This document shows, piece by piece, positions 12,618 through 15,600 of a DNA stretch of 64,000 bases. The stretch is from Capsaspora owczarzaki ATCC 30864 (taxonomy: Eukaryota; Opisthokonta; Filasterea), in NCBI RefSeq assembly GCF_000151315.2, contig NW_011887295.1, positions 609,504-673,503 of the forward strand. Direction: 5' to 3'. The translations under genes were made by a program, and so were the position numbers. The notes below the pieces were generated by a model. It was not told the origin of the DNA. It saw only the letters and a list, made by a program, of their open reading frames with translations, and searched no databases. Each line of letters opens with the position of its first letter. Position 1 is the first letter of the stretch.

Positions 12618-15600
12618 ATGCTGAGCGACGACATGCCCTCCACTTCAGCCGCGTCTGGCATTCTGCGCTCCTACGAAGACGAGTGCAAGTACATTGAGCG
12701 CGTGTCGCCCACCCAGTTCCGCATCAAGAAGGGCTTTGTTCACAACATGAAGGTAGTAATCACAACAACCATACAGTCAGACAATCAGCACGGCCGGGAT
12801 GATGACGCAACGAGAGCCGGATTGCGTAAAAGGCGGCTCTGGTTCCCGGCTTCAAGTCGAAGCAGTCCGCGCGCACTCTGATCGAAAGTCAGCTCCTGGT
12901 TCTGAAACTCATCAATAACCCCCCCCCTTCTTCTTGTTGTCTATGCATGCTTTGCGCTCGCTCAGGTCGATGGCTGCTTTTACGTCAACCAGCATCTGCA
13001 GGAGCTCATGTTCGACGAGCTCCAGCAGTTCTCAGACAGCCGCGGCGTCGGTGGCTTCCTCCCTGCAGTCAAGCAGATTGCCAACGTCGCTGCACTGCCA
13101 GGCATTGTTGGGGTACGGGCACGAAAGAGAGAGTTGCATGGGCATGGGCATGGGCAACAAAAGCAAAAGTTTGTATTGGGTTTGCATTGGGATGTTTGCT
13201 CACCGTTCCGTCCCCTGCCCTCCGCTCGTCCGTCGCTGATCCTTGTGCTTGAACGACGACACTTCCGACAGCGTTCCATTGGCCTGCCAGACATCCACTC
13301 GGGCTACGGGTTTGCGATCGGCAATATGGCTGCTTTCGACATGAACGACCCGGAGGCTATCGTCTCGCCAGGTACACACAATGATGAAGCACATCCCTCA
13401 GACTCGCATCCACTGTTTGTCATGGATGTAGTGAGCGATTTTGCCCGTGGCATATCGGATTGTTCATGATTGCTCGACGCTCACATCGAATTTTTTTGTT
13501 TTTTGGGTTTTCAACTTTTCATCACATCTCGGCCGCGCGTTCAGGTGGCGTCGGATTTGACATCAACTGCGGCGTTCGGCTCATTCGAACAAACCTGACC
13601 GAGAAGGAGGTCGGGCCTGTCAAGGAAGAGCTGGCGCAGGCGCTGTTTGATCACATTCCAGTCGGCGTTGGTTCAAAGGGTGTGATTCCGATGACCATGC
13701 ACAACCTGGAGGAGGCTCTTGAAATGGGCATGGATTGGTCGCTTCGAGAGGGTATGGTTTTCGATCGAGTGTTTGACTTTGCAAAATACCAATGCCGCAA
13801 AAAGCCTCACGCACGGATATCAAACGAATTGTGTCTTGCTTTCATGTCCTTCGCCTCCTCCTTTCCCACAGGCTACGCATGGGCTGAAGACAAGGAGCAT
13901 TGCGAAGAGTACGGTCGCATGCTGCAGGCCAACCCGGCCATGGTCAGTCAACGCGCCAAGAAGCGTGGCTTGCCGCAGCTGGGAACGCTCGGTGCTGGCA
14001 ACCACTACTGCGAAATCCAGGTTGTGGACGAGATTTACGATGCGCACGCCGCCCGCAAGATGGGTATCGACCAGAAGGGTCAAGTGTGCATCATGGTGCA
14101 TTCCGGCTCGCGAGGCCTTGGCCACCAGGTGGCCACCGATTCGCTCGTTTCGATGGAGAAGGCTATGCGCCGTGATGGCATCGAGGTCAACGACCGTCAG
14201 CTTGCGTGCGCCCGAATCCAGTCCAAGGAAGGGCAGCACTATCTCCAGGGCATGGCCGCAGCCGCCAACTACGCTTGGGTCAACCGCAGCAGCATGACCT
14301 TCCTGACTCGCCAGGCCTTTGCCAAGATTTTCAACTCGACTCCCGACGATCTGGACATGCATGTCATTTACGATGTCTCGCACAACATTGCCAAGGTCGA
14401 AGAGCACATGGTCGACGGCAAGCTCAAGCAGCTAGAGTGACGGTCTCTAAATCCGGATGGCGCCTCCTACGGCCTGTGTGCAAGCTTCCGCTCGCACCTT
14501 GCCCCCCTGTGTCAAACAATGCATCAATACCAATGTGTGGGTGAAGTAGCGGGGCGCTTTGGCCCGAACTCATCGCTAGGCACGCGAAAAACGAAAAAAT
14601 GACGAAAAAGCGGATCCAGCCAAAATCCAATGCATCCGGATTAAAATGCAGGCCGCCACGAGGTTGATCGCAAACGCGCCCTGTGGGCTCTGTGACATCG
14701 CCAGCCCGCCTTCCGCGAGCCAAATGCAGTCTACACACGATACGTGTTATCGTGACCAAGCGGGCGCGGAGGTGCGGTCGACACGAGCGTGGGAATGGAG
14801 GAGACGCTCGAACACCACTTTTGCAGCCAATCCATCCTGAGCTCCCGTCCGGCTGCGAATCGCTCTTTGAGCTAGATTGATGGAGTATATGACATATCAA
14901 ACCATTTTATTCAATAAAAAATACAAAAATCAGGCAGAGTTTACCTTTCGTGCGACGGGCGATGGCGATGGCGATCAGCCGTCGGTTTTTTCCAGCCGTT
15001 TTGGCGAGTCGCCCAAACCACCCCGCGACGAGCGCAGGCACCTCAACAAGACGTTCCATGTGATAACCAACTCGATTTATGTACAATGGTGAAAGAGCCG
15101 AGGCGAAGCAATGAATAGACTGCGAGAAAAACGCCTCATCCGGATTAAAATGCAACTTTTGAGGTCTGTAATGCGTCCGGATTTAGAGACAGTTACTCTA
15201 CTTGTGCACCGCAAGGGCTCAACCCGCGCGTTCCCTCCCCATCATCCGCTCATTCCGGGTATGAATTTTGTAGCAGTGACTATGAGAGCAAGGGTTTTTT
15301 TTTGTTTGTTGTGTCTGCGGGTTTACTGATTTTTTATTTTTTCTGTTTTTGTTCGTTTGTTATTTTTTCTGGTTTTGCTTTTTGTTTTGTTTTTTGTTTT
15401 GTTTTTTGTTTTGTTTTTGGGGTTTCTCGTTCGGTTGCCATAGTTGACTATCAGCTCATTGGCCAGCCCGTTTTGATTGGTGGAACCATGGGTACTTGCT
15501 CGTTCGTCCTGACGGGCACCGAGAAGGGCATGCTTGAAACGTTTGGTTCGACCTGCCATGGCGCTGTGAGGCCCAGTCATCATGGACGTATGGAAGTTTG

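What the first reader, a model, noticed from the sequence alone, without database searches (positions are those of the whole stretch)
14433..15200. Transposon-like element sits between two codons of RtcB, 6 bp before the catalytic histidine codon
A 764-bp TIR element flanked by TA interrupts a conserved coding exon. Removing it with one TA joins codon CTA directly to CTT-GTG-CAC and restores the family sequence through [12 protein letters not shown] with all downstream phases correct. Left in place, the frame meets a stop one codon into the element, so the protein would lose its guanylylated histidine. The gene is expected to be essential or nearly so, and the rest of the ORF shows no decay. 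That suggests recent insertion, heterozygosity, or RNA-level removal.
Basis: partly seen in the sequence, partly recalled or inferred. Interest (0 to 1): 0.9.

Follow-up and report, generated by a model that had tools for sequence, protein, structure and literature searches.

The report
Jumping gene splits RNA-ligase RtcB gene
A shortened copy of a known kind of jumping gene sits in the middle of the tRNA-ligase gene RtcB of a small protist, most likely an ordinary insertion carried beside an intact copy, though it raises a testable question because RtcB is itself part of a system that cuts such elements out of messages in animals.

Summary
At 14435-15198, with TA on both sides, a 764-bp element with 23-nt inverted ends splits exon 5 of a ten-exon RtcB gene (12618-16083), 6 bp before the active-site histidine codon; read on, translation stops one codon into it. 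It is an internally deleted derivative (2420 bp lost at a 1-nt microhomology), the only one found, of a 3.2-kb pogo-like DNA transposon with near-identical full-length copies elsewhere in the genome. It is not a copy of the present burst: 24 of 768 sites differ, 7 of 574 polarisable sites are private. A full-length sister splits a tyrosine-kinase exon. No second canonical RtcB was found, but a divergent intact RtcB2 was. None of 11 in-frame GT-AG pairs restores the native protein. Best reading: an ordinary insertion, probably on one haplotype or in part of the culture of (inferred) Capsaspora owczarzaki. Bold reading, not excluded: SOS-type RNA excision, whose reported ligase is RTCB itself; the ends are predicted to pair at 25 of 26 positions in RNA. 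No reads could be examined.

The parts
12618..16083 (+). RTCB (canonical eukaryotic RtcB) gene, 10 exons: 12618-12752, 12966-13112, 13272-13371, 13545-13751, 13872-14434, 15201-15258, 15444-15565, 15654-15682, 15814-15904, 15976-16083
   Evidence: phases and GT..AG borders of the 8 ordinary introns; PDB RtcB homolog matches E 7.5e-203 and 1.8e-74; PF01139
14435..15198 (.). 764-bp non-autonomous pogo-like element, internally deleted
   Evidence: two-piece match to 3199-bp full-length copies; 2420 bp missing at a 1-nt microhomology
14433..14434 (.). TA target-site duplication, left copy
   Evidence: TA also borders both ends of 4 sister copies
15199..15200 (.). TA target-site duplication, right copy
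14435..14457 (+). left terminal inverted repeat
   Evidence: 8 left ends genome-wide
15176..15198 (-). right terminal inverted repeat
   Evidence: 6 right ends genome-wide
14633..14650 (+). internal 18-nt direct repeat, first copy (possible transposase-binding site: inference)
15137..15154 (+). internal 18-nt direct repeat, second copy
14946..15155 (-). remnant of the start of the transposase reading frame
   Evidence: G000:C4:624449-624658 matches residues 1-72 of the 881-aa transposase at 84% identity
15207..15209 (+). active-site histidine codon of the VHRKG motif (its catalytic role is recalled), 6 bp after the insertion
   Evidence: motif aligned

Best explanation
This is an internally deleted, non-autonomous copy of a pogo-like (Tc1/mariner-type) DNA transposon, placed by a transposase supplied by full-length copies into a TA dinucleotide of exon 5 of the only canonical RTCB gene found (shown: anatomy, relatives, TA duplication; the source of the transposase is inferred). 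On this allele translation stops one codon into the element, before the active-site histidine (shown by sequence), so the allele is null unless the element is removed. The lineage most likely lives on an intact allele: the assembly shows one haplotype, or one variant of a mixed culture, that carries the insertion (inferred).
For: Full-length relatives with an open 881-aa frame and DDE_1, PF03184 E 1e-16. TA on both sides here and in 4 of 4 sister copies with two complete ends. One of these sisters splits a tyrosine-kinase exon: PF07714 profile 163-192 before and 198-257 after the element, and the frame runs on through the site for 7 nt to a GTAAGT donor and a CAG acceptor; so a second conserved-exon insertion stands in the same assembly. 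No second canonical RTCB found. Archease and RLL, partners of RTCB (RLL = CGI-99/RTRAF recalled), are present. 76 of 76 invariant RtcB positions are kept, though this is not decisive. [quoted passage not shown]); haplotypes of some genes were phased by hand in a later assembly (PMC12221973, one section and passages seen); RTCB is named among cell-cycle-regulated G2/M genes (PMC7098662, passage seen).
Against: No empty allele was seen: one locus only in the assembly and no reads at hand. Nothing that I saw establishes the ploidy of the organism. 7 of 574 polarisable sites private to this copy could mean long residence, which would not suit a rare damaging allele. Species identity is inferred.
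Confidence: 0.62

Rival explanations
1. SOS-type RNA excision: the inverted ends of the element pair in the RTCB transcript, an endonuclease cuts the hairpin out, and RTCB ligates the flanks. RTCB would then mend its own message, a self-dependent loop.
For: Arms predicted to pair at 25 of 26 positions with probability 0.82-1.0 in an 841-nt context (the stem is also in both structures); duplex -42.9 kcal/mol against a mean of -11.2, sd 3.1, lowest -22.5, for 500 shuffles. SOS splicing of DNA transposons from animal mRNAs with RTCB as ligase is described in a review (PMC13247085, passages seen). RTCB is reported as expressed in Capsaspora.
Against: No RNA evidence. Any TIR element gives such a hairpin. 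The 841-nt stretch as a whole does not fold much better than chance (z -2.0; 2 of 20 shuffles fold as well). CAAP1 and AKAP17A models found nothing, though these searches are weak: six frames, no introns, and the AKAP17A model rang in none of the controls while the CAAP1 model rang in 2 of 14, both below its cut-off. A cell with no prior RTCB could not start the loop. The primary paper (PMC12779559) is not held; the factor names are recalled.
Confidence: 0.1
2. Dead canonical RTCB: the gene is fixed for the insertion and its work is done by the divergent RtcB2-type ligase on C11.
For: Intact 518-aa RtcB-family frame with LHRKG, IGDDIGCGM and HGAG motifs; NF007153 E 1.9e-137 and TIGR03073 E 1e-121, both over their curated cut-offs.
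Against: RtcB2 is far from RTCB: best PDB match 2epg E 4.8e-27, the eukaryotic RtcB homologs E 5.5e-23 to 5.4e-22. In bacteria this type is linked with PrfH and protection from colicin E3 (PMC9223846, search listing and start of abstract seen; a ribosome-repair role is recalled). RTCB shows no stop or frameshift in its ten exons; partners are present; RTCB is reported as expressed in Capsaspora, but which of the two genes that paper means was not checked.
Confidence: 0.13
3. Assembly artefact: the element was joined into RTCB by misassembly or consensus error.
For: Repeats can be misjoined; no reads were seen.
Against: The deletion junction and 7 private substitutions were found at no other place, so there is no known source for a chimera; TA on both sides and exact TIR ends are the mark of real transposition.
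Confidence: 0.05
4. The element is removed as an ordinary spliceosomal intron (introner-like).
For: Eight ordinary introns lie in the same gene; a weak donor GTGACG lies 2 nt inside the element.
Against: The ends are GAG..CTC, not GT..AG. Of 11 in-frame, stop-free GT-AG pairs that keep the histidine, none restores the native residues: the nearest replaces eight residues by four, the others add 11-35 or remove 9-20 codons. 25 further GC-AG pairs were counted but not listed, and two-intron solutions were not tried.
Confidence: 0.03
5. DNA-level precise excision in part of the cell's genomes (ciliate-IES-like or somatic).
For: TA-bounded; precise excision would restore the frame.
Against: No dual-nucleus biology is known in this lineage (recalled); Tc1/mariner-type excision usually leaves footprints (recalled); one sister copy (C9:249077) has an altered right end rather than a clean one.
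Confidence: 0.02

Closest known systems
pogo-like DNA transposons of Capsaspora owczarzaki (Cop1-5, PMC4007536)
   Same: TA target; inverted ends; DDE_1 transposase in the full-length relatives; near-identical young copies
   Different: Which published family this is could not be checked (no sequences in the text seen); the copy here is short and has no transposase
Non-autonomous deletion derivatives of DNA transposons
   Same: Ends kept, 2420 bp of the inside lost, would depend on transposase from elsewhere
   Different: Only one such copy found; not an amplified MITE family
SOS splicing of DNA transposons from animal mRNAs (review PMC13247085)
   Same: TIR element inside an exon, ends predicted to form a hairpin that brings the exon ends together
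   Different: Not shown here; the host gene is the ligase of that very system
RtcB2 (PrfH-linked RtcB of bacteria, PMC9223846)
   Same: The second RtcB gene of this genome scores over both curated cut-offs
   Different: It has an N-terminal extension; no PrfH search was made

Membership tests
pogo-like / Tc1-mariner type DNA transposon | TA target-site duplication | tested here: met
   window and 4 of 4 sister copies with two complete ends; a fifth sister has an altered right end and a sixth runs into N
pogo-like / Tc1-mariner type DNA transposon | terminal inverted repeats | tested here: met
   23 of 25 complementary; 14 ends genome-wide, 0 for the reversed control
pogo-like / Tc1-mariner type DNA transposon | DDE_1 (pogo/Tigger-type) transposase in autonomous relatives | tested here: met
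   PF03184 E 1e-16 on the 881-aa frame of L009; that frame at 100% identity in three copies
pogo-like / Tc1-mariner type DNA transposon | DDxD catalytic triad with pogo-type spacing | tested here: inconclusive
   read by eye in the frame: NFDES, MDGSS, QPLD, 36 residues between the last two; the expected spacing is recalled, no alignment made
pogo-like / Tc1-mariner type DNA transposon | groups with pogo families in a tree | not tested
   no tree was built
MITE family | many near-identical short copies with both ends | tested here: not met
   one short two-ended copy among the 16 matches and the 14 ends (lower bounds); C14 and C1 hold one-ended fragments
spliceosomal intron / introner | GT-AG borders whose removal restores the protein | tested here: not met
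   0 of 11 in-frame GT-AG pairs
SOS-splicing substrate | inverted ends able to pair in RNA | tested here: met
   (prediction only)
SOS-splicing substrate | CAAP1 and AKAP17A homologues in the genome | tested here: inconclusive
   no match; searches ignore introns and have no positive control over the cut-off
SOS-splicing substrate | transcripts lacking the element | not testable with these tools
   no RNA reads
RTCB (canonical eukaryotic RtcB) | end-to-end homology with a eukaryotic RTCB and kept invariant residues | tested here: met
   291 of 370 and 117 of 135 identical; 76 of 76 invariant columns kept in the two pieces (65 of 71 fetched prokaryotic loci used)

The most novel reading that the evidence does not exclude
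The RTCB message of a unicellular relative of animals carries an inverted-repeat transposon that is cut out as RNA and sealed by RTCB itself, so that the RNA ligase heals its own transcript; this would extend SOS splicing beyond animals and make RTCB levels depend on a self-sustaining loop.
Probability: 0.07. Interest if true: 0.92.

Novelty: new member of a known kind. Interest (0 to 1): 0.42.

Why it matters
As a transposon insertion it is ordinary. It matters because of the gene hit: RTCB is the tRNA-splicing ligase of animals and the reported ligase of the RNA-level removal of DNA transposons (PMC13247085, passages). An RTCB allele with a TIR element in an exon, in what seems to be a culturable unicellular relative of animals, together with a second filled exon (a tyrosine kinase), gives a natural test of whether such removal predates animals, which existing RNA-seq of the organism should be able to settle.

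Tried and rejected
Conventional splicing: donors from 14331 to 14700 and acceptors from 14700 to just before the histidine were enumerated; 36 pairs stay open and in frame, 11 of them GT-AG, none of these 11 gives the native protein; the 25 GC-AG pairs were not listed.

Dating the insertion: of 24 differences 7 are private to the RtcB copy, 4 shared with an older copy, 2 three-way, 11 unresolved; the private ones may predate the insertion, so no date is given. An 11-bp stretch absent here is also absent from the old relic on C7, so it may be a gain of the full-length lineage and is not counted as damage.

Decay test of RtcB: 0 of 76 invariant codons changed, 2.1-3.1 expected if unconstrained for the age implied (P 0.13-0.05); at 95%, 3 of 144 changed, 3.9-5.8 expected (P 0.46-0.17); at 90%, 3 of 163, 4.4-6.6 expected (P 0.36-0.11): inconclusive (6 of 71 loci dropped). 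A first run in which only 5 of 71 relatives passed my filter found 1 of 135 changed; the P0 printed there is for zero changes and does not apply; it is superseded.

Intron-bearing tRNA-Tyr: one strict pattern, 0 matches, says nothing. Trl1-type ligase: the one PF09511 match lies on small contig C27. A pattern for the internal repeat was badly designed and found nothing. Exon hits by sisters: of four joined sister sites only the kinase one had Pfam support over a cut-off; frames at C5:248226 and C10:605740 gave nothing over a cut-off (TSC22 E 2.5e-4 and ZapB E 0.0014, both below their cut-offs, for the latter), C10:798895 was not scanned. Extending this count to other pogo families failed. A ploidy search of the papers gave nothing on Capsaspora (12 of 38,648 listed).

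Full report
What is there. The window lies on contig C4 of a 27.46-Mb, 29-contig genome. Genome size (27.97 Mb draft for Capsaspora owczarzaki, PMC4007536), TA-targeting pogo-like transposons and a first contig of 3,794,338 bases (a figure of PMC12221973 shows chr. 01 up to 3,800,000, slightly beyond that) fit Capsaspora. This identity is inferred, not tested.

The gene. Ten exons from 12618 to 16083 encode RTCB; the eight ordinary introns have GT..AG borders and the phases agree. The 384-residue piece before the site and the 135-residue piece after it match PDB chains named RNA-splicing ligase RtcB homolog (species recalled as human) with E 7.5e-203 and 1.8e-74. 291 of 370 residues are identical to 8btt and 117 of 135 to 9i8v. 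On 9i8v the two pieces leave no gap.

The element. Between CTA (14434) and CTT GTG CAC (15201) stand 764 bp bounded by TA. Read on, the frame gives E and a stop. The ends are inverted repeats, 23 of 25 complementary. The end pattern occurs 14 times in the genome with up to 3 mismatches, 8 left and 6 right ends by my count, against 0 for the reversed pattern.

Its relatives. The element matches the two ends of 3.2-kb copies. Four sister copies with two complete TA-bounded ends differ from one another at 0-4 of 3189-3199 sites, with 10 gap columns for one of them. A fifth, C9:249077, differs from these at 2-6 sites, with 110-120 gap columns and an altered right end. A sixth, C10:1345300, runs into N, so its mismatch count in that call is meaningless. 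Three copies hold the same 881-aa frame with DDE_1, E 1e-16. The RtcB copy lacks 2420 bp of it, joined at a 1-nt microhomology, the usual look of abortive gap repair (inference). It also lacks 11 bp that the old relic on C7 lacks too. It is the only short two-ended copy found (counts are lower bounds).

Age. Against one full-length copy, 24 of 768 aligned sites differ. With older partial copies as a third party for 574 sites, 7 changes are private to the RtcB copy, 4 are shared with an older copy, 2 are three-way and 11 unresolved. So it belongs to an older sublineage than the present burst. Whether the private changes arose in RtcB or before is open, so 'recent insertion' is neither shown nor excluded.

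Is the rest of the gene under constraint? With 65 of the 71 prokaryotic RtcB loci plus a eukaryotic RTCB, 76 positions are invariant and all 76 are kept; 2.1-3.1 changes would be expected in an unconstrained gene over the age implied by the private changes (P 0.13-0.05). At a 95% threshold 3 of 144 are changed against 3.9-5.8 expected (P 0.46-0.17). This fits a working gene and a fresh insertion alike and does not decide.

Exon hits by sisters. Flanks of four sister copies were joined to see the empty site. At C9:23672-26870 the element splits a tyrosine-kinase gene: PF07714 profile 163-192 on one side and 198-257 on the other. The frame runs on for 7 nt past the TA to GTAAGT, and a GCAG acceptor stands before the next coding stretch, so the insertion is inside the exon. 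So at least 2 of the 5 two-ended, TA-bounded copies split a conserved exon; of the other three sites two gave no domain over a cut-off and one was not scanned.

Other RNA ligases. A second RtcB-family gene on C11 is intact, 518 aa, of RtcB2 type (NF007153, TIGR03073, both over cut-off). Archease and RLL are present. The one T4-type RNA ligase match lies on small contig C27, which looks phage-like (impression only). So canonical RTCB is the likeliest tRNA-splicing ligase; intron-bearing tRNAs were looked for with one strict pattern, without a match, which is no test.

How it most likely works. A transposase from a full-length copy moved this short element, or a longer parent that later lost its middle, into a TA of exon 5. 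The allele makes a protein cut before the histidine. The cells are most likely served by an intact allele, on another haplotype or in other cells of the culture. For Capsaspora, reports of a polymorphic culture (PMC4007536) and of haplotypes phased by hand (PMC12221973) make that easy to accept, and RTCB is named among G2/M genes (PMC7098662). None of this was seen directly here.

The bold alternative. SOS splicing removes DNA transposons from animal mRNAs and uses RTCB for the joining (review PMC13247085, passages seen; the primary paper is not held). In the RtcB transcript the ends are predicted to form a stem with 25 of 26 positions paired, starting at the TA, which brings the exon ends together. 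If the system works here, RTCB would mend its own message. Against it: any TIR element forms such a stem; the stretch as a whole folds only slightly better than shuffles (z -2.0, 2 of 20 as good); CAAP1 and AKAP17A were not found in weak searches; no RNA data could be read. In the library, one paper holds both 'Capsaspora' and 'RTCB', PMC7098662. Among the rows listed for SOS splicing (20 of 34, 10 of 754) only the review uses the term.

Verdict. Reads of DNA and RNA should decide between heterozygosity and RNA removal.

Noticed in passing
G000:C11, locus L020 751-2307: An intact RtcB2-type gene (NF007153, TIGR03073 over cut-off), a type known from bacteria, with an N-terminal extension, in this eukaryote; possible horizontal acquisition.
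   Followed up: partly
G000:C9:23672-26870 (loci L006, L010): A full-length copy of the same transposon splits a tyrosine-kinase domain exon, 7 nt before a GTAAGT donor.
   Followed up: partly
G000:C9:249077-252375 (locus L013): A sister copy lacks the last bases of its right end, has a repeat of about 7 bp of the flank beside it, and a transposase frame that matches in two pieces: looks like the scar of a failed excision.
   Followed up: no
G000:C27, locus L073: Small contig with three tandem tRNA genes and a T4-type RNA ligase frame; looks like phage DNA left in the assembly.
   Followed up: no
window 16760-22096: A 1778-aa open frame with two glycosyltransferase-like domains in one protein.
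   Followed up: no
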